From positions 6,017-13,990 of the forward strand of contig CAQBGY010000061.1 of assembly GCA_948759685.1 (NCBI GenBank): a stretch of 7,974 bases of DNA, written 5' to 3'. Both the position numbers and the translations under genes were made by a program. Position 1 is the stretch's first letter; every line of letters starts with the position of its first letter. This document shows positions 1 to 7,974 of this stretch, one piece after another. The notes under the pieces were generated by a model that did no database searches, was not told where the DNA came from, and saw only the letters and a list, made by a program, of their open reading frames with translations. The DNA is from an uncultured Eubacterium sp. Lineage in GTDB: Bacteria > Bacillota_A > Clostridia > Lachnospirales > Lachnospiraceae.

Positions 1-560
1 AGGATAGTGGAAGTGTGACAAAAGCACCAACGGAAACAGAGAAAGGAATCAGGACGTACAGGTGCAGCGTTTGTGGCTATGTAATGAGGACAGAGGAAAT
101 AGCAAAACTTCCTGTATCACACACGCATAGCTACGGAACAAGTTGGAAATCAGACAGCAATAACCACTGGCATGAATGTGCTTGTGGTGACAGGTCAGGA
201 GAATCCGCCCATACAGAGGATAGTGGAAGTGTGACAAAAGCACCAACGGAAACAGAGAAAGGAATCAGGACTTACAAGTGCAGTGTTTGTGGCTATGTGA
301 TAAGGACAGAGGAAATAGGAAAATTACCGCCATCACATAAGCATAGCTATGGAACAGGTTGGAAATCAGACGGCAATAAGCACTGGCGTGAATGTGCTTG
401 TGGTGACAGGTCAGGAGAATCCGCCCATACAGAGGACAGTGGAAGTGTGACAAAAGCACCAACGGAAACGGAGAAAGGCGTTAGGACGTATAGGTGCAGC
501 GTTTGTGGCTATGTAATGAGGACAGAGGAAATAGCGAAACTTTCCCCATCACATACGGAA
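1..560 (+). repeat. 216-bp in-frame tandem repeat array (about 2.5 units visible)
   Basis: The sequence starting AGGATAGTGGAAGTGTGACA recurs at 1, 217 and (with one change) 433, an exact 216-bp period equal to 72 codons. The third unit loses similarity near 550-560. The array continues off the left edge, so copy number is unknown. Units are nearly identical at DNA level over their first 55 bp, but differ in patches elsewhere: units 1 and 3 share the block around GTGCAGCGTTTGTGG and TAATGAGGACAG, while unit 2 has its own variant. Each unit encodes two CxC/CxxC pairs plus several His residues, which could bind zinc or form disulfides. Confidence 0.95.
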
Positions 561-1424
561 AGCAATCAGCCGGGAGATAAGAAGCCGGATAATAACCAGT
601 CAGAGAATCATGGCACAGACGAAAGACCAGACCGTGTGAAGCCCGAAATAAGCAGCACAGGAGAGGATAAGCCGGAAGCTGGAAAACCATTTATCAAGGA
701 TAAATCCGGTCAGGAAGGCACAGCCGTGAAAAGCGGCTGGAAGGTCATTCGGGAGGAAACCAGTCAGGCAGAGGACGGAAAAACGGTCATTGTTGACATG
801 AACGGCTCTACTGTAGTTCCGGGAGATGTGCTGGAAAATATCCGTGGCAGGGACATTACGATTGTTTTTGACATGGGAAACGGAATGACATGGAGCGTGA
901 ATGGGAAGGACATCAGGGAAGGCAAAATCAGTGATATTGATTTTTCTGTACAGACAGATACAGAAAAGATACCAGTGGATATTGTGAACCATGTCACAGG
1001 GGAGAACTACAGCATACAGATAAGCCTTGCCCATGAAGGAGAGTTCGGTTTTACGGCAGTGCTTTCCATCAGCCTCGGCAAAGAGAACGCAGGGCTTACA
1101 GCAAGCCTGTATTACTACAAGGAAAGCACAGGGGAGCTTGAATTTATCTGTACAGACACAATTGCAGAGGACGGAACCGTGTCGCTTGCCTTTCCCCACG
1201 CATCGGATTATGTAATCACAGTAGATGCAAAGCAGGAGGAAGAAAACGATATAACAGAGGTGCCAAAGACTGGCGATGAAAGCCCGCAGACTGATGCAGC
1301 AGATATAAAAGTGGAAAATGATTTGTGGAACCGCATATGGATATTCGTGGTCTGTGGGGTGTTGGTGATTGCAGGTTTGGGAATTTTCCTTGTAAGAAGA
1401 AAAAATAACAGTAAAAGTTCATAA
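1..1424 (+). CDS. Cell-wall-anchored surface protein with Cys-rich tandem repeats (5' end missing)
   Basis: The reading frame is already open at position 3, so the gene starts left of the window; the GTG at 15 lies inside a repeat and is not a credible start. The order is: 72-residue repeats with CSVCGY and HW-x-ECACGD motifs (to about 560); a Lys/Pro/Glu/Asp-rich, probably wall-spanning linker (about 560-720); a beta-rich domain (about 720-1235) containing MNGSTVVP, WSVNGKDI, GEFGF and HASDY, a module I associate with surface proteins of Clostridia; a VPKTG sorting-signal variant (1260-1274); a hydrophobic helix (about 1335-1394) and a basic tail (RRKNNSKSS). This is the usual layout of a sortase substrate displayed on a Gram-positive wall. 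VPKTG is about 20 residues from the helix, longer than usual. The role is probably adhesion or surface contact, possibly in mating; that is inference. No sortase gene lies in the window. Confidence 0.85.
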   Translation, partial: DSGSVTKAPTETEKGIRTYRCSVCGYVMRTEEIAKLPVSHTHSYGTSWKSDSNNHWHECACGDRSGESAHTEDSGSVTKAPTETEKGIRTYKCSVCGYVIRTEEIGKLPPSHKHSYGTGWKSDGNKHWRECACGDRSGESAHTEDSGSVTKAPTETEKGVRTYRCSVCGYVMRTEEIAKLSPSHTESNQPGDKKPDNNQSENHGTDERPDRVKPEISSTGEDKPEAGKPFIKDKSGQEGTAVKSGWKVIREETSQAEDGKTVIVDMNGSTVVPGDVLENIRGRDITIVFDMGNGMTWSVNGKDIREGKISDIDFSVQTDTEKIPVDIVNHVTGENYSIQISLAHEGEFGFTAVLSISLGKENAGLTASLYYYKESTGELEFICTDTIAEDGTVSLAFPHASDYVITVDAKQEEENDITEVPKTGDESPQTDAADIKVENDLWNRIWIFVVCGVLVIAGLGIFLVRRKNNSKSS

Positions 1425-1510
1425 GCGGAAGGCGGGGAATTATGGTACTTGATGACATAGAACCGTGGTCTGACAGGGCAGTCAGGAAAATCATAATTCC
1501 CTGCCGCCGT
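1425..1510 (+). other. Long stem-loop between surface-protein gene and cargo cassette
   Basis: Positions 1431-1444 pair with 1492-1505 (14 consecutive pairs with one G-U), and after a small internal loop 1425-1428 can pair with 1507-1510. The 47-nt loop contains a second small hairpin, CTGAC (1470-1474) with GTCAG (1481-1485). The structure begins right after the surface-protein stop codon. It lacks a proper T-run (TTAAAAATATTTTATTT follows), so it is a weak candidate for a terminator; it may be an attenuator, an RNA-processing site, or the end-paired remnant of a small mobile repeat. Function is unknown. Confidence 0.6.
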
Positions 1511-1513
1511 TAA
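1442..1513 (+). CDS. Possible 23-residue small ORF inside the stem-loop
   Basis: ATG at 1442 opens a frame of 23 codons ending in TAA at 1511-1513, with peptide start MVLDDIEPW and end IIIPCRR. A purine-rich stretch AAGGCGGGG (1429-1437) sits 4 nt before the ATG and could be a ribosome binding site, though it is imperfect. Both this stretch and the ATG lie in the 5' arm of the stem-loop, and the last codons form the 3' arm, so translation and folding would be mutually exclusive. This could be a leader peptide for the cargo cassette downstream, or simply a chance ORF; the short length leaves this weakly supported. Confidence 0.2.
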   Translation: MVLDDIEPWSDRAVRKIIIPCRR

Positions 1514-1540
1514 AAATATTTTATTTAAGGAGGAAGCATT

Positions 1541-2527
1541 ATGGGTTATCAAAACAATCTTTTAATCAGAACAAGTTTAAGTGATGAAGGGGTAATTGGA
1601 AAAAGGAAGTTCAGTTACCAGTCCCCGGATATGATTGTGCATACACAGGTTCAAAATCCCGATGAGTATTTTAAGGAAAATTATGATAAAGATGTCACTA
1701 TGCCACTGGATAAAAATTCGGGTACAAATTTTATATATGTCAGGGGGAAAAACAAAGCAGCGAATAATATGGCAACAAAGGGATATGTATGGTTATATTG
1801 CTGTGGTTCATCATTATTTATGAAGCCGAGCCTGTGGAGCAGCAAAAAAGTATTTACGGCAGATGGCGAAAGCTGTGCATTTATATCTTCGGATAAACAA
1901 AATGACATTGCGGTAATTGACACGCCTTTTCTGTTGAATGGGTTAAATAACCAATATTTCTGCATGGTTGTAATTGTTACGGATGAAAAGAAAGAATGTA
2001 TCCCTCCGGATTTTGCGTCTTATGACCAGTTTAACTACTGGGTTCGCACGAATATTGGCGTTGCAGTGCGTAATTTTAATGTGATAAAGGGCAGCACCAT
2101 ATATGATTTCCAAAGGTTGGATGCACTGTCTAATCCGGGGGACGAAGATGAGCCTGCCATGATTCAGGTGAAATGGACGGGGCTTCCTGATGGATATACG
2201 GTGGGGGTAAAATGCGATGCACTCCCTGATTTGGAAAAAAGCGTAAAAAGCAGTGAAAAAACCAGGATGCTTGCTGCTGCGACTGTCGTTCCGGCAGGGT
2301 TTGACGGATATGTTGAAACATTTGTATATAACAATGACGGAAAGGTGGAATTGCCTGAAAATGCACTGATAGAAACAAAGTTTTTAACATCAGTCAGCTT
2401 TAACCATAAGTGTTATCCGTTTGGCAGGACACTACAGGAGCTGGGGCTTGAACCTGCAGAACATATCGGCTTGACAGAAACCTCAAAGCTGGTGCTGACA
2501 GGAGAATGCAGTACGATATTTGTGTAA
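1541..2527 (+). CDS. CARDB/Ig-like beta-domain protein, first gene of the cargo cassette
   Basis: This encodes 328 residues from an ATG with a strong AAGGAGG site (1527-1533) 7 nt upstream. No signal peptide or membrane helix is visible. Residues about 60-185 (NFIYVRGKNKA, GYVWLYCCGSSLFMKPSLW, IDTPF, NQYFCMVVIV) follow a pattern I associate with CARDB-like beta-sandwich domains: N-x-x-YVR-x-x-N, then G-x-V-x-LY followed by a Trp, then a hydrophobic FC-x-x strand. Residues about 205-325 look like a second all-beta domain (IQVKWTGLPDGYTVGVKC onwards). No catalytic motif is evident, so a structural or binding role is likely. The gene stops 10 bp before the start of the LamG/transglutaminase-like gene, so the two are almost certainly co-translated. 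The domain assignment rests on pattern memory, not on a search. Confidence 0.75.
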   Translation: MGYQNNLLIRTSLSDEGVIGKRKFSYQSPDMIVHTQVQNPDEYFKENYDKDVTMPLDKNSGTNFIYVRGKNKAANNMATKGYVWLYCCGSSLFMKPSLWSSKKVFTADGESCAFISSDKQNDIAVIDTPFLLNGLNNQYFCMVVIVTDEKKECIPPDFASYDQFNYWVRTNIGVAVRNFNVIKGSTIYDFQRLDALSNPGDEDEPAMIQVKWTGLPDGYTVGVKCDALPDLEKSVKSSEKTRMLAAATVVPAGFDGYVETFVYNNDGKVELPENALIETKFLTSVSFNHKCYPFGRTLQELGLEPAEHIGLTETSKLVLTGECSTIFV

Positions 2528-2532
2528 GGGGG
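2526..2532 (+). promoter_or_regulatory. Ribosome binding site AAGGGGG deciding the start of the large cargo gene
   Basis: AAGGGGG lies 5 nt upstream of the ATG at 2538 and overlaps the stop codon of the preceding gene. It favours the ATG at 2538 over the in-frame TTG at 2520, which has no comparable site and would overlap the upstream coding sequence. The placement suggests translational coupling. Confidence 0.7.
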
Positions 2533-2537
2533 ATATT

Positions 2538-5500
2538 ATGACAGGAAAAAATACTTATTTTGCATTGCGCAAATCCATAAAAGGCAGTGTTACGGCAGAG
2601 AACAGGCTGGGAAGCCTGCTGAATGGCATGGCAGCTTTTTCCGTGGATGCTATGGTCAGGGTTATGGAACTGACAACCGATAAGTCCGTACTAAAGATAG
2701 AGGGAATTGTAGATTTTGGAATACATGAGGATGGTGTCTATGTAAAACTGCCGGGGTATCCTGTTATTTACTCGAACCGTTCACAGGGGGCTTTAAAGGT
2801 GGATGAGTGGTTCCATATCGGCATGACGACAGATGGAAGCAGGGTATCCCTGTATTTAGATGGGAACTATAACTGCTGTGTATTTGGTCAGGCATCAGGA
2901 GCCAACTGTAATAACAGCATTATGATAGGAGATGGATTTGCAGGAGATATACGTCATGTCCGTATATTCAGTGAGTGTCTGGACGCTGACACCATGAAAA
3001 AAATCATGTATGAGCCGAATTTGGACATCATTCCTCTGGCGTGGTATGATTTTACACAAAATCCGGCTAAGGAGCAGATTGGCAACAACCTGATTTCATT
3101 GAAAGATGCCCACATCAAATCCTTTACTTCTTCCATATGTTTGAAAGGCAATTCTTATCTGGAAGTGAAGGCGGAGGATCTGGCTGATGTACGTCCGGGA
3201 TACTATGGGACACAGCAGTATTCTGTCCAGGTGCATTTTAAGTTTGTGACTGGGGAAGATGATGTATCCGAGCGTTACAGTATCCTTTCTGATATGACAG
3301 AATGCAATATTGGAGGGATCAATCTTTATCTGAAACGTATGGAAGATGGTCTTCATCTTTGTTTTACGCACGCTTTTGAGCGTTCGGAGTGGAATACAGT
3401 GGTATCAAAATCTGTAATCAGGCAGGGAAAATGGATCAATGCCGCCGTTGTTTTTAATGTGGAAACAGCCACGATGTATATTGATGGGAAGGTGGACTGT
3501 AAGAAAGAAAGTCTTTTTCCGGCTTTTAATTATGATACTGGAAGAATGTTTCTGGTTGGTGCAAAACGTGATAATGCAACAGACAGCCTGACGGATTATT
3601 TTGCGGGGTATATTTCCCAGTGCGATGTATGGGAGAGGGCTTTATCAGATGAAGAAGTGCAGGCATATATCAATCGTGAACCGGATGTGGATGCTGAAAA
3701 ACGGGGGTTTGCATTGGATATTGACAATGATGGCTGTTTCAATGCTGTGACTTATCATGGCGTTGCATTAGGAAACCATGCCAGAGTGGAGGAGGAAGTC
3801 AGCGATACCCTTAACGGAACTTCTGAGGTCATATCTTTGAAGCAGTCTGTAAAAGAGCCTCTTTCAGAAACCGAATTATCTGAAATATACGAAATGTGCC
3901 TGAACCAGTGGATAGAACATTATGCAGAACAAGGCATGAAATGCAGCTCCCAAATGCCGTACACGGTTAAGGCATGGAAAAAAGAAGGAACCGTTTATTT
4001 TGTAGGATGCCATAACGGAAAGGCTTATACGATTGGCACGATGGAAGAAAAAGGAACTTCCGAAGTGGTAATCTGGTGGGTGGAATTGATTTTAATGGTC
4101 ATAGGCGGAGTCTGCGCTGTTGCTTTTGGGGTGTATATCAGTGTAAAGAGTAAAGCAATCAAAAAACTCACCGAAATACTTTACGGAAATGCAACATTGT
4201 TTAGTGCTTTGAAACGCATAGCGCTTGGAAATATTACTGCTGACACGTTTCTTTCTTTGTTTACTCTTTTATACAAAGGAAATGTACTTTTGGAAATATT
4301 GAAATTGTTGATTTCTGGTATAGCCTTTTGGTCTATTATCACTATATGCGTAAAATTTACTTCGTTAGTTCTGGGGTATGGGTGGGCGACGACAGCAGTT
4401 GAGCTGGCAGCTTTAGTCGTACAGGTAGGAATACACATTGCATCTTATCCTGACAGGGATGATTCGGAGGAAACAAAGTGTACTGTAACATTGTCAGAGG
4501 TAAAGTTTTCAAATCTGTCATTGGACGGTATGGGATGGAAGCCTGATAATAATGTGAATGCGAGAGATGTGCAGGGATATAGCAAGGGCACGGTGGATGA
4601 GGCTATAATAGAATCATATGAAGTTATTAAAAGCGGGGGAGAAAAAAGACGGCTATCAGAATGGAAAAGGGGAAATATGGATTCCCAGACAGTGGCAGCA
4701 TATGACTTAGACATCGAAAAAAACGCAATAGTAGTTCAGGCAAGTTTTATATTGGAAAATACAGGATATATAGACACTACTGTTGAGGTATATGCAGAGG
4801 GGAAATCGTTTTTTGGTACGTCGGATAAAAAGAGCATTCTTGTTAAGGCAAAAAGAATAACTACTGTGGTGAAGAATTTTCAATTTAATTATTACTCGCT
4901 GCCGTCAGAGGTTAAGGAAATTAATGAAACCATAACATGGAATTGCAGTGCTGATTTGATGACGAAGGAAAGTATCAATGTGAAACTGTATTTTATTATG
5001 TCCCCACCGAAATGCCAATGGTTTGGCAAGCCGCTTTGGGCAGATGCACTGAAATACATCATACCCAAAGTGGAGGGTGTGTCAGATATGCAGAACTTAT
5101 ATGGAAGTATAACCAGAGCCATAAATGCAGAAACACAGTTGTTATATACACCTGAAAGCAATTATGTGACATGGGATATATTTAAACAAAAAATATTTTA
5201 CTTATCCCGATTCTTATATAATATGTTCCACAGAGAACAGCCAGATGGGATGGAAATTACCTATCGTGTAAACTGTACGGACTGTGCTGCGATTGTAATG
5301 AGTTTTGCAAATATGCTGGGAGGGAATTTATGCTGTGAACGTATGGGAAATGCAAGCGGGGGGTCTCAATTTTCATTAAATCCCATCATACCAATAGGAA
5401 ATTCGGAAATAGGAAACTATGGATATTTTCTATACCATGAAACAGCGATGCGGCATGACGGAACAGATAATGATAAGAATAATACGGTTCATAAGGTGTA

Positions 5501-5723
5501 TGATGCATCTTTGAAAATAGGGATGCCATCATATGGGTACGGGCTGTCTGTAGGGATGAGTTTTTCACAATATACAGATGAAAGAGTGCATGGAAACCTT
5601 GAAGGTGTACAGGCGGGTCCCGATTCTTACCGTGAGTGTCTGTGTCCTATAACACCGGAGGGCGTGGGTTCTTGTGATTACGCTGTACAGGAAGGTTCTA
5701 ATGCATTGCCAGTAATTGTTTAG
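2538..5723 (+). CDS. Two LamG-like domains, membrane segments and C-terminal transglutaminase-like domain
   Basis: This encodes 1061 residues from the ATG at 2538. Residues about 30-160 form a LamG/concanavalin-like domain (WFHIG at 91, YLDG at 106, FAGDIR at 134). Residues about 200-382 form a second one (GKWINAAVVF at 297, YIDG at 314, FAGYISQCDVW at 355). A linker leads to a hydrophobic centre with likely membrane helices near 510-536, 588-605 and 608-635. A beta-rich part follows. The C-terminal domain has NCTDCA (912-917), fitting the C-x-D-x-A transglutaminase-like motif with C913 as nucleophile, then H967 (LYHETA) and D989 (VYDASL) as the likely triad partners. No N-terminal signal peptide is visible, which is odd with lectin-like domains. 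The domain could be a protease, deamidase, acyltransferase or an inactive fold; the substrate is unknown. The middle and 3' parts look more AT-rich by eye than the relaxase gene. Confidence 0.8.
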   Translation: MTGKNTYFALRKSIKGSVTAENRLGSLLNGMAAFSVDAMVRVMELTTDKSVLKIEGIVDFGIHEDGVYVKLPGYPVIYSNRSQGALKVDEWFHIGMTTDGSRVSLYLDGNYNCCVFGQASGANCNNSIMIGDGFAGDIRHVRIFSECLDADTMKKIMYEPNLDIIPLAWYDFTQNPAKEQIGNNLISLKDAHIKSFTSSICLKGNSYLEVKAEDLADVRPGYYGTQQYSVQVHFKFVTGEDDVSERYSILSDMTECNIGGINLYLKRMEDGLHLCFTHAFERSEWNTVVSKSVIRQGKWINAAVVFNVETATMYIDGKVDCKKESLFPAFNYDTGRMFLVGAKRDNATDSLTDYFAGYISQCDVWERALSDEEVQAYINREPDVDAEKRGFALDIDNDGCFNAVTYHGVALGNHARVEEEVSDTLNGTSEVISLKQSVKEPLSETELSEIYEMCLNQWIEHYAEQGMKCSSQMPYTVKAWKKEGTVYFVGCHNGKAYTIGTMEEKGTSEVVIWWVELILMVIGGVCAVAFGVYISVKSKAIKKLTEILYGNATLFSALKRIALGNITADTFLSLFTLLYKGNVLLEILKLLISGIAFWSIITICVKFTSLVLGYGWATTAVELAALVVQVGIHIASYPDRDDSEETKCTVTLSEVKFSNLSLDGMGWKPDNNVNARDVQGYSKGTVDEAIIESYEVIKSGGEKRRLSEWKRGNMDSQTVAAYDLDIEKNAIVVQASFILENTGYIDTTVEVYAEGKSFFGTSDKKSILVKAKRITTVVKNFQFNYYSLPSEVKEINETITWNCSADLMTKESINVKLYFIMSPPKCQWFGKPLWADALKYIIPKVEGVSDMQNLYGSITRAINAETQLLYTPESNYVTWDIFKQKIFYLSRFLYNMFHREQPDGMEITYRVNCTDCAAIVMSFANMLGGNLCCERMGNASGGSQFSLNPIIPIGNSEIGNYGYFLYHETAMRHDGTDNDKNNTVHKVYDASLKIGMPSYGYGLSVGMSFSQYTDERVHGNLEGVQAGPDSYRECLCPITPEGVGSCDYAVQEGSNALPVIV

Positions 5724-5724
5724 C

Positions 5725-5730
5725 AGGAGG
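5725..5730 (+). promoter_or_regulatory. Ribosome binding site AGGAGG supporting a GTG start
   Basis: A perfect AGGAGG ends 7 nt before the GTG at 5738, which is ideal spacing, and begins 1 nt after the TAG of the large cargo gene. The next in-frame ATG at 5759 has no such site nearby, so GTG is the chosen start. Confidence 0.8.
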
Positions 5731-5737
5731 AAGGATT

Positions 5738-6208
5738 GTGGAGAAGATAGTTGAAAACATGAAGAAAACATATCTATTTGAAACATGGGAACGAAGAAAA
5801 ATAGAAAAAACGGATATGTATTTCCCAGCCATGCTGAAATTTTCTGATAAAGAGGGCTTTGTAATTGAAAAAAGTGTTGCTCCGGTGAGGATTATGGGTT
5901 CCTATGAAACTACATGGAAGGACATCAGGAATGGAAATTCCAGATTCAGGGTAGAAGTAATCCCGTTTGGGAGCATGGAAGAAGCGGATGAGTATATCAT
6001 ATCGAAATTATGTTATGTTTCAGTCATGCTGCCAAGAGTGGACAAAAAAGAGAATGGGGACAGGATTATTTTTGGGATTCCCGATAGTATTTTAATAGGA
6101 CGGGAACGTAATGTATACTGGTGTATGCAGAACCTGTGTGCCGAAAGAGTAGATCTTGCCAGATTCCAAAGCGGACTATTACAGGCAATTACCGGTCAGA
6201 AAGGGTAG
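5738..6208 (+). CDS. Small conserved-looking protein of unknown function, last gene of the cargo cassette
   Basis: This encodes 156 residues, starting with GTG 14 bp after the stop of the transglutaminase-like gene. No signal peptide, membrane helix or Cys-rich motif is seen; the protein looks soluble and of mixed alpha/beta type. Notable stretches are RFRVEVIPFGSMEEADEY (69-86), NGDRIIFGIPDSIL (106-119), GRERNVYWCMQN (121-132) and an amphipathic C-terminal helix (VDLARFQSGLLQAI, 138-151). The order of these blocks (a strand ending in F-x-S with a helix containing EA, then a GD turn, then an R-N-V strand) is reminiscent of small uncharacterised proteins, but I cannot name a family. Its position suggests a partner, chaperone or immunity protein for the large product upstream; that is inference from context only. 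Confidence 0.75.
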   Translation: MEKIVENMKKTYLFETWERRKIEKTDMYFPAMLKFSDKEGFVIEKSVAPVRIMGSYETTWKDIRNGNSRFRVEVIPFGSMEEADEYIISKLCYVSVMLPRVDKKENGDRIIFGIPDSILIGRERNVYWCMQNLCAERVDLARFQSGLLQAITGQKG

Positions 6209-6226
6209 ACGGTAAAATTGGCAGTA

Positions 6227-6269
6227 AGGGAAAACAGGAAATATATTTTTGGATTTTTCTGTTTTCCTT
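6227..6269 (+). terminator. Hairpin 18 bp after the cargo cassette, possible first terminator
   Basis: Positions 6227-6241 (AGGGAAAACAGGAAA) pair with 6255-6269 (TTTTTCTGTTTTCCTT) nearly without interruption around a 13-nt loop. It sits just downstream of the last cargo stop codon. The stem is AT-rich and is followed by AAAAAGCGTTTT rather than a clean T-run, so termination would be weak; it may instead protect the mRNA 3' end. Confidence 0.4.
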
Positions 6270-6407
6270 AAAAAGCGTTTTATGGAATTGTGTGTGGAAT
6301 ACAGCAGGAAACGATTGGAAAGTGGAGCAAGATACATGGAGAAAAGAAACAGGAGAATACATGGCATAAAGTACAAGACAGTACGAAATAAAAATCTTGC
6401 TCACATC

Positions 6408-6456
6408 AGAGGGTATCGCAACAGAGAGAAAACTTGTTGCGGTACCCTCTTTTTTT
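6408..6456 (+). terminator. Strong intrinsic terminator between the converging units
   Basis: A 16-bp stem (6408-6423, AGAGGGTATCGCAACA, with 6435-6450, one G-U pair) has an 11-nt loop and is followed by seven consecutive T (6450-6456). This is a textbook rho-independent terminator for + strand transcription. On the - strand the sequence after the stem is only moderately T-rich (ATTTTTATTT after about 11 nt), so it may also stop relaxase-gene transcription, less efficiently. It lies 10 bp from the relaxase stop codon. Confidence 0.92.
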
Positions 6457-6465
6457 ATGTCGAAT

Positions 6466-7911
6466 TTAGAGGGATTGGGTATTTTTTCCAATCTTTTTGT
6501 CAGCAGGTTGTTGTTCTAAATTGTGGTCAAGATACTGGTTAAGGTTGTCGAGTTTCCGATTAAGGTCGGCGGCTTCTTTCTCGGCAGACTTATAGGTTTT
6601 CTGTAAAGCCTGCTTTTTGGAACAGAGCGCATTGTAATCGCTGCGGAGCTTTTCAATATCAAGGTTTTTGGTGTCAATTCCAAGACGTTTCAGCATATTT
6701 TCCGCACCGTCATGGAGGATAAGCTCTGTTTCGTGCTGGCGCAGATACCTGTCTTTATCTTTTGATTTTTGATAGCGGATATGGTAGATGCGGTTGGTTT
6801 TATACTGCTCCGCATACTTTAAAACCTGTCCGAAATCTTTTAGCCGATGCTCCGTTTCCACAAGGCTTTCACGGGCTGTTTTTGCCAGTGTGGACTTGGC
6901 GGCAATCTGCTGTTCAAGCTCCGCAATAGAGCCTGCCTGACTGTAACTTGCGGCGGCAATTTTGAGGTTTTGAATGTCAGCCCAATGTTTTAAGCCGGGA
7001 CTTTGCATGAATTTATCCCCGGTGGTGTCAATAAGGTTTTTCTTTGAATAATCTTTGACAACGGGCTTTTTCCTTGTTGGGAATGGCACACGCTTTTTAT
7101 CCTTCGCAAGTGTCTTTTCCTCGATGCGTTCCTTTATCCGTTCTTTGGTATATTCAGCACCCAAAGACTTTGCGCTTCCACGGACAAAACGCTCCCTGTC
7201 CAGAGGACGGAAGGAGATAAATTTATGGGAATTTTCCCCGCCGGAACCGCCTTCGGTTACGATGGTTTCTCCCTTGATTTCGTAGCCTTTTGCCCGGAGC
7301 AGGTCAATGCAGTCCTCGTAAGTCGCAGCGTTTTTGATGGCTTCGTCAATGTCAGCTTTTAACTGTTCTTTCCATGAAGAACCGTTTTTGCCTGCCTGCC
7401 ATTCCTTGTAAGTTTTTCCTCTGGCAGCACCCTTTTCAGACAATGGTTTTTCGCCTGGAATAATGACAGACAGCTCATGCTTCCGGCAGAGGTCATCGCT
7501 CATGTTGCGGATATTGTAATAGGTCTTTTTGCAGTCGTGATATTTCTCATGGTTAATGTTATCAGCGGCGCAAAAAATAATGTGGTTGTGAACGTGTCCT
7601 CGGTCTATGTGCGTAGTGACAACATAGGAGTATCTGCCCTCTAAAAGTTTGTCCGCAAGCTCCACGCCAATCTGGTGGGCTTCCTTATAAGAAACCTCGC
7701 CGGGAAGAAAAGACTGTATCAGATGGTAGGCTTTGTTTTTATCCGACTGGCTGGTTTTTGACAGGGCAAATTTGAAATCATAAGCGGCAGTTTCGGGGCT
7801 GCACCCATAAGAAGAAATTAGTATGCCCTCATCGGTTTTGTCAGGGTTGCAGATGTAATCTACTGCTTTACTGACGGTTGCCGTGATAGCATGGATTTTT
7901 GTGTATGCCAT
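6466..7911 (-). CDS. MOBP-type relaxase (MobA/VirD2-like mobilization nuclease)
   Basis: This encodes 481 residues. It nicks one strand at the origin of transfer and carries it to the recipient. The N-terminal nuclease domain shows the likely catalytic tyrosine Y19 in KAVDYICNP, a motif-II-like HLIQSFLPGE (63-72), and the metal-binding histidines in HIDRGHVHNH (H101, D103, H106, H108, H110), the 3H signature of this superfamily. Residues about 325-465 are rich in Glu, Lys, Gln and Leu in heptad-like order, so a coiled coil is likely there. The length is usual for the compact relaxases of Clostridia elements, and no frameshift is seen. The ATG at 7911 fits the family's usual N-terminus (M-A-x-TKIHAI). 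It overlaps the mobC-like gene by 52 bp, pointing to coupled translation. The origin of transfer is expected upstream of mobC, outside the window. Confidence 0.95.
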   Translation of the reverse strand: MAYTKIHAITATVSKAVDYICNPDKTDEGILISSYGCSPETAAYDFKFALSKTSQSDKNKAYHLIQSFLPGEVSYKEAHQIGVELADKLLEGRYSYVVTTHIDRGHVHNHIIFCAADNINHEKYHDCKKTYYNIRNMSDDLCRKHELSVIIPGEKPLSEKGAARGKTYKEWQAGKNGSSWKEQLKADIDEAIKNAATYEDCIDLLRAKGYEIKGETIVTEGGSGGENSHKFISFRPLDRERFVRGSAKSLGAEYTKERIKERIEEKTLAKDKKRVPFPTRKKPVVKDYSKKNLIDTTGDKFMQSPGLKHWADIQNLKIAAASYSQAGSIAELEQQIAAKSTLAKTARESLVETEHRLKDFGQVLKYAEQYKTNRIYHIRYQKSKDKDRYLRQHETELILHDGAENMLKRLGIDTKNLDIEKLRSDYNALCSKKQALQKTYKSAEKEAADLNRKLDNLNQYLDHNLEQQPADKKIGKNTQSL

Positions 7912-7973
7912 ACCTTTTGCATCAGCTCCTTTACTTCTTTTACATCGGCTTCATATACGTTGCCTGTGGCGTT
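7860..7973 (-). CDS. mobC: MobC-like relaxosome accessory protein, C-terminal end only
   Basis: A - strand frame enters from the right edge and runs 37 codons to a TAG at 7862-7860. The visible peptide begins NATGNVYEADVKEVKELMQK, which matches the C-terminal pattern of MobC family proteins (the usual context is NQIA-x-x-(V/A)N-x-TG-x-(V/I)Y). MobC proteins bind near the origin of transfer and help the relaxase open the DNA. The position immediately upstream of, and overlapping, the relaxase gene supports the assignment. Most of the protein, including its ribbon-helix-helix-type DNA-binding part, lies outside the window. Confidence 0.75.
   Translation of the reverse strand, partial: NATGNVYEADVKEVKELMQKVWHTQKSMLSRQPSVKQ
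7926..7932 (-). promoter_or_regulatory. AAAGGAG, poorly spaced candidate ribosome binding site of the relaxase
   Basis: Read on the - strand, AAAGGAG lies 14 nt upstream of the relaxase ATG, farther than ideal; a second purine run, AAAAGG, is only 1 nt away. Neither is optimally placed. Since ribosomes translating mobC pass over this start, relaxase synthesis may depend on coupling. Confidence 0.35.
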
Positions 7974-7974
7974 C

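What the first reader, a model, noticed from the sequence alone, without database searches (positions are those of the whole stretch)
1541..6208. Three-gene cargo cassette: beta-domain protein, LamG/membrane/transglutaminase-like protein, small partner
Seen: three + strand genes with gaps of 10 and 14 bp, each with its own good ribosome binding site, next to a relaxase module. The first has a CARDB-like domain, the second two LamG-like domains plus membrane segments and a Cys-His-Asp domain, the third is unknown. None has a visible signal peptide. From memory, the C-terminal pattern (VNCTDCA, FSLNP-x-x-x-IG, YHE-A, YDASL) and the N-x-x-YVR-x-x-N domain also occur in large uncharacterised proteins of other phyla, so this may be a widespread, undescribed module captured by a mobile element. 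Possible roles (inference): an effector with accessory proteins, an anti-competitor or defence system, or a surface-modifying system.
Basis: partly seen in the sequence, partly recalled or inferred. Interest (0 to 1): 0.8.

Follow-up and report, generated by a model that had tools for sequence, protein, structure and literature searches.

The report
Mobile cassette with swappable transglutaminase-like protein
A bacterium carries, in an exchangeable slot of a mobile DNA element, an undescribed three-gene cassette whose large protein joins sugar-binding-type, membrane-type and enzyme-like domains, and whose enzyme-like end differs between copies in the way seen in swapped toxin ends.

Summary
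The three genes are real: A 1541-2527, B 2538-5723, C 5738-6208, gaps of 10 and 14 bp, no signal-like N-termini. B has two LamG domains, three TM-like segments, an Ig-like domain and a Cys-His-Asp domain. The highest-scoring structural matches for the last two together are transglutaminases, but scores are modest and the catalytic half of the model is poor. Beyond LamG, none of A, B, C has a known family. The cassette fills a cargo slot (window 1416-6286) between an LPXTG-like gene and a relaxase; one same-genus genome has a different gene there. B is mosaic: residues 1-640 are up to 97% identical between relatives whose residues 655-1061 are only about 40% identical; the break follows the last TM-like segment. 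In the one pair of loci comparable as DNA, C does not follow B's variation, unlike a typical immunity gene. B-type proteins have an immediately upstream partner in 5 of 5 intact loci, an A-type one in only 2. A-family genes also occur in Pseudomonadota, beside annotated Tc toxin genes and near a LamG giant, and fused to peptidases. Best reading: a toxin-like, polymorphic effector with accessory proteins. Homology and exchange are shown; function, target and export are inferred.

The parts
1416..6286 (.). Cargo slot: stretch with no counterpart in the related element of genome G003 (L092), which instead has 912 bp with one unrelated 209-aa ORF
   Evidence: blastn window vs L092: flanks match at window 321-1415 (70%) and 6287-7974 (86%), nothing between
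1470..1497 (+). Possible promoter of the cassette (CTGACA-16-CATAAT, 10 of 12)
   Evidence: weak: 27 such sites found against 17.4 expected in the window
1541..2527 (+). Gene A, 328 aa, beta-rich by inference; member of an undescribed family also found in Pseudomonadota plasmids and as part of M4 and S8 peptidases
2538..5723 (+). Gene B, 1061 aa: LamG-LamG-3 TM-like-Ig-like-transglutaminase-like
2625..3017 (+). B, first LamG-like domain (about residues 30-160)
   Evidence: Pfam reports two LamG_3 stretches; limits approximate, from alignments
3210..3662 (+). B, second LamG domain (residues 225-375)
   Evidence: PF13385 best stretch
4065..4442 (+). B, hydrophobic region with three TM-like segments (residues 510-635)
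   Evidence: hydropathy
4455..4517 (+). Break between conserved and swapped part (residues about 640-660)
   Evidence: sliding identity, e.g. P0006 vs P0007: 100% in 541-640, 83% in 641-660, 20-63% from 661
4611..5009 (+). B, Ig-like beta sandwich (about residues 692-824)
   Evidence: AlphaFold2 model, block pLDDT 63-92
5010..5720 (+). B, transglutaminase-like domain; C913 at 5274-5276, H967 at 5436-5438, D989 at 5502-5504
   Evidence: C, H and D invariant in 14 of 14 sequences of A11; VIA-align; profile comparison
5738..6208 (+). Gene C, 156 aa, no known family; conserved while B's C-terminus varies (window vs G037)
6466..7911 (-). Relaxase of the carrying element (not part of the cassette)
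   Evidence: PF03432 5.9e-35

Best explanation
A polymorphic, toxin-like effector cassette carried as exchangeable cargo on a mobilizable element. Shown: an operon-like A-B-C, a slot with different content in a related element, and a B protein whose more constant part (two LamG domains plus hydrophobic segments) is joined, just after the last hydrophobic segment, to a strongly varying module made of an Ig-like domain and a Cys-His-Asp domain. Inferred: B is released without a signal peptide (cell lysis or an unknown route), LamG binds glycans of a target cell, the hydrophobic region inserts into its membrane, and the transglutaminase-like domain modifies or cleaves a protein, with the swapping reflecting target or recognition specificity. 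A is an accessory beta-rich subunit and C a small cytosolic helper or chaperone, not a typical cognate immunity protein.
Confidence: 0.42

Rival explanations
1. Surface or contact module of the producing cell: B sits in the donor membrane with LamG domains displayed, and the cassette alters adhesion, mating-pair contact or exclusion, helping the element spread.
For: Mobile element with an LPXTG-like gene directly upstream and a relaxase downstream; LamG domains; TM-like segments with a positively charged loop 534-584.
Against: No signal peptide seen in front of a 500-residue N-terminal part; no LPXTG-anchor hit in A, B or C; two distant relatives lie beside ordinary metabolic and transport genes.
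Confidence: 0.2
2. Intracellular defence: B is a membrane-anchored effector that acts on the producer's own proteins after phage or plasmid sensing; C-terminal variation reflects an arms race.
For: Cytosolic-looking proteins, TM-like segments, cargo of a mobile element; the G037 remnant lies beside GajA- and GajB-like genes.
Against: No PADLOC model matches A, B or C at E up to 0.1; LamG domains have no obvious role in the cytosol; the G037 neighbourhood is one remnant only.
Confidence: 0.17
3. The C-terminal domain is a binding fold with a transglutaminase ancestry but no activity, and A-B-C form a structural or lectin complex.
For: The G069 relative keeps A, LamG-like, hydrophobic and Ig-like parts in alignment but seems to lack the NCxDCA motif; transglutaminase-like folds without activity are known (recalled).
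Against: N912, C913, D915, C916, A917, H967 and D989 are invariant in 14 of 14 sequences of A11, and also in the G578 relative.
Confidence: 0.13

Closest known systems
Transglutaminase-like fold (transglutaminase 2/3, factor XIII; PF01841)
   Same: Beta sandwich followed by a core with Cys, His, Asp in that order; Cys at the start of a helix in the model; spacing 54 and 22, against about 58 and 23 in transglutaminase 2 (its residue numbers recalled)
   Different: No Pfam match; joined to LamG domains and hydrophobic segments; catalytic half not modelled with confidence
Polymorphic toxin systems (Rhs, CDI and the like; recalled)
   Same: More constant N-terminal part joined to a varying C-terminal module; carried on mobile DNA
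   Different: No known delivery domain; the C-terminal types are still one homologous fold; no co-varying immunity gene found; C is conserved
Tc toxin complexes
   Same: One A-family gene lies directly upstream of annotated Tc genes on a Burkholderia ubonensis plasmid; large proteins without classical signal (recalled)
   Different: No Tc-type family in A, B or C by Pfam or NCBIfam
Giant LamG proteins of plasmids in Salipiger, Nostoc, Calothrix, Planktothrix and Streptomyces (uncharacterised)
   Same: LamG domains; the Salipiger one has an A-family gene close behind it
   Different: B matches them only in LamG parts by profile; their common non-LamG core was not seen in B

Membership tests
Transglutaminase-like superfamily | Conserved Cys, His, Asp in this order with fitting spacing | tested here: met
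   C913, H967, D989 invariant in 14 of 14 and in the G578 relative; the weaker G069 relative seems to lack the Cys
Transglutaminase-like superfamily | Match to the family profile PF01841 | tested here: not met
   no hit for B or for 8 of 8 domain members at E up to 10; hhalign against five PF01841 domains P 0.0066, probability 5.7%, 23 columns around the Cys
Transglutaminase-like superfamily | Fold | tested here: inconclusive
Transglutaminase-like superfamily | Enzyme activity | not testable with these tools
   needs an assay
Polymorphic toxin system | Conserved N-terminus joined to an exchanged C-terminal module | tested here: met
   (11 sequences); DNA step (one pair of loci)
Polymorphic toxin system | Cognate immunity gene that varies with the C-terminal module | tested here: not met
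   C stays 93-98% identical in DNA while B's end is 74-91% (one pair of loci only)
Polymorphic toxin system | Recognised delivery domain or secretion signal | tested here: not met
   no signal-like N-terminus; only LamG in Pfam above cut-off
Tc toxin complex | TcA/TcB/TcC-type proteins | tested here: not met
   no such family in A, B, C
Known anti-phage defence systems (PADLOC) | Match to a PADLOC model | tested here: not met
   0 families for A, B, C at E up to 0.1
LamG (Laminin_G_3) domain proteins | PF13385 above gathering score | tested here: met
   81.1 bits against 27.6, two stretches
Mobile-element cargo | Same element with other content between the same flanks | tested here: met
   L092, one genome

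The most novel reading that the evidence does not exclude
An undescribed class of effectors on mobile elements of Bacillota that needs no known secretion system: LamG lectin domains and hydrophobic segments carry an allelically exchanged module built like the sandwich-plus-core of animal transglutaminases, assisted by a beta-rich partner whose family also serves Tc-type toxins and giant LamG proteins in Pseudomonadota.
Probability: 0.3. Interest if true: 0.85.

Novelty: new variant of a known kind. Interest (0 to 1): 0.6.

Why it matters
If right, Clostridia-type bacteria pass around a toxin-like effector with exchangeable enzyme ends, in a cargo slot that can be scanned for more such genes. 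The A family would tie together several unexplained classes of very large, signal-less proteins. Even without that function, three gene families and a cargo slot are described for which Pfam, NCBIfam and PADLOC have no model beyond LamG.

Tried and rejected
C fused to distant B proteins: I suspected that the C-terminal tails of the L030, L031 and L032 proteins are gene C; profile comparison gave probability 0.1 and the C profile hit none of them. Rejected. The C model was too poor to search (mean pLDDT 36.6).

A related to the L030/L031 partner or the L032 Hint-containing partner: the alignment was not convincing and the A profile did not hit them. Treated as different families.

B related to the 958-aa G578 protein or to the Undibacterium LamG protein: not significant (E 0.07, E 0.14). 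The Undibacterium, Methylocystis, Stanieria, Kovacikia, Calothrix, Planktothrix and Streptomyces loci that I fetched hold no A-family gene and no B-type Cys domain by profile. Not counted as support.

C as immunity protein: not supported. Viral origin: A or B not found in phages or IMG/VR; the PHROG hits of B lie in LamG parts. PDB sequence searches: nothing useful for A, C or the C-terminal part of B; one S-layer-domain protein for the LamG part. Rfam: none up to E 0.5. First genome-contig scan: none; the second returned only the two loci already known. Foldseek against BFVD: weak matches. Papers (listings only, no paper opened; 103 listed none): no description of such a cassette in the listed titles and abstract starts.

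Full report
Observation. The three + strand genes exist at the stated coordinates, with gaps of 10 and 14 bp. Homologous protein clusters exist for each (the window's own included): 12 for B, 7 for A, 48 for C. The larger number for C may mean that C also occurs without A and B; no genomic context comes with these proteins. B has two LamG_3 stretches. A and C have no family in Pfam, NCBIfam, PADLOC or PHROGs at the limits used. None has a signal-like N-terminus by a hydropathy scan; B has three TM-like segments at 510-528, 587-605 and 610-635.

Setting. G269 and G281, in the same order as that genome, correspond to records titled Clostridia bacterium and Eubacteriaceae bacterium, so I infer Clostridia. 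Behind the relaxase (PF03432) follow a NikA/MobC-like gene, a serine recombinase and a tyrosine integrase. No conjugation machinery caught my eye in the ORF list of this contig; I did not search for it. Searching the relaxase region in 38 genomes of the genus (own included) gave matches in 18, most of them partial. I took three of these loci, G003, G013 and G006. In G003 the same LPXTG-like gene and relaxase flank 912 bp with an unrelated 209-aa ORF, where the window has 4871 bp. That ORF has no Pfam family and no plasmid match. In G013 and G006 only the relaxase side matches; the G006 contig ends shortly behind it. So the slot has exchangeable content; the direct evidence is one genome.

Mosaic B. 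Pairs of relatives nearly identical over residues 1-640 can be strongly diverged after residue 660: P0006/P0007 97% against 42%, P0003/P0009 94% against 39%, P0005/P0007 90% against 39%. The alignment has 11 rows (P0004 left out, P0001 being the window's own). Eleven of its 55 pairs exceed 85% in the N-terminal part; six of these eleven, those between P0003/5/6 and P0007/9, have 39-42% in the C-terminal part (table). The break falls directly after the last TM-like segment. The remnant in G037 shows the same step against the window in DNA: B's end 74-91% identical, C and the relaxase end 93-100%. The step and the two types point to recombination; relaxed constraint or fast selection on the C-terminus could add to it.

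Distant B-type loci. Genome searches (the sets overlap) with B or its C-terminal part found it, besides the window's own, in G037 among 98 relatives, in G269 and G281 among 392 genomes of the order, in G578 among 398 of the phylum, in no further genome among 48 of one family, and as a fragment in G867 among 63 of one class (not looked at further). Other matches are to LamG parts only (2, 8 and 9 genomes) and were set aside. G069 came through its A gene: its B-type protein is a weak match, E 4.6e-4 (for 1000 sequences) against the Ig/transglutaminase profile and 0.01 against full B; it keeps LamG-like, hydrophobic and Ig-like parts in alignment and seems to lack the Cys motif. In the 5 intact loci (window, G269, G281, G578, G069) a gene lies directly upstream on the same strand, 10, 96 and 50 bp away or overlapping: A-type in window and G069; a 223/233-aa family in G269 and G281; a 535-aa protein with a Hint-like domain (2.5e-7, just under Pfam's cut-off) in G578. 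C was seen only in the window's subfamily and the G037 remnant among the loci scanned; a C search of 295 genomes of the order found only the window's own.

The A family. It was found in 1 of 38 genomes of the genus, 4 of 299 of the phylum and 2 of 301 of the class, the own genome included each time, and in 3 plasmid records (Burkholderia 1e-16, Paracoccus 2e-3, Salipiger E 1); the Burkholderia and Salipiger proteins match each other at E 5e-8 and 7e-8. Most loci later scanned with the A profile were in that profile, so those scores are by construction. Eight loci in all. Six are stand-alone genes: window, G069, G578 (second locus), G649, Burkholderia ubonensis, Salipiger abyssi. Five of these six lie beside, or one small gene away from, a gene for a protein of more than 900 aa: B; the G069 B-type protein; a 958-aa protein in G578; annotated Tc toxin subunit A; a 2365-aa LamG protein with a 182-aa gene between. 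In G649 the contig begins 220 bp upstream and no such gene follows on its 5.5 kb. Two are C-terminal parts of peptidases: M4 in G697 and, over about half the profile, S8 in Paracoccus. This is a small sample picked up by similarity to A; I give it as a lead, not as a statistic.

Interpretation. Varying C-terminal module, cargo slot, lectin-type domains, hydrophobic segments and a partner family shared with toxin-type giants fit an effector delivered to other cells, released by lysis or an unknown route. What speaks against a textbook polymorphic toxin is the missing delivery signal and the constancy of C. Function, target, export and the roles of A and C are inference.

Literature. Five searches listed no paper on such a cassette; I read listings only and opened no paper.

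Noticed in passing
L092 2589-3218 (-), genome G003: Other cargo of the same slot: a 209-aa ORF without obvious signal peptide, with repeated GDENGxT motifs and no Pfam family.
   Followed up: partly
L029 8714-14162 (-), genome G037: Remnant of B and an intact-looking C beside GajB-like and GajA-like genes; GajA-like sequence is spread over two ORFs.
   Followed up: partly
L032 6074-7681 (+), and Tistrella mobilis pTM1 L042 9944-11689: A protein with a Hint-like C-terminal domain precedes a B-type gene in G578; a relative over 97% of its length (22%, 7e-17) heads a row of large uncharacterised genes on a Tistrella plasmid.
   Followed up: partly
L050 9793-12669 (-) and 8176-9806 (-), genome G578: 958-aa protein with long amphipathic and hydrophobic stretches followed by two genes of the A family (the second a weaker match); partial relatives of the large protein in 5 plasmid records of cyanobacteria and proteobacteria.
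   Followed up: partly
L044 279-7376; L040 1-7659; L070, L072, L073, L074: Giant LamG proteins sharing a non-LamG part on plasmids of Salipiger, Nostoc, Calothrix, Planktothrix and Streptomyces (9 records, Salipiger included), uncharacterised.
   Followed up: partly
window 3-1424: Open-ended LPXTG-like surface gene (anchor match below NCBIfam's cut-off) with near-identical Cys/His-rich repeats directly upstream; related gene in G003 (L092).
   Followed up: no
P0005: A B homologue seen in 251 contigs carries the source name Bacteroides acidifaciens, although the genomes with B found here are Bacillota; possibly a mislabelled bin or a transfer.
   Followed up: no
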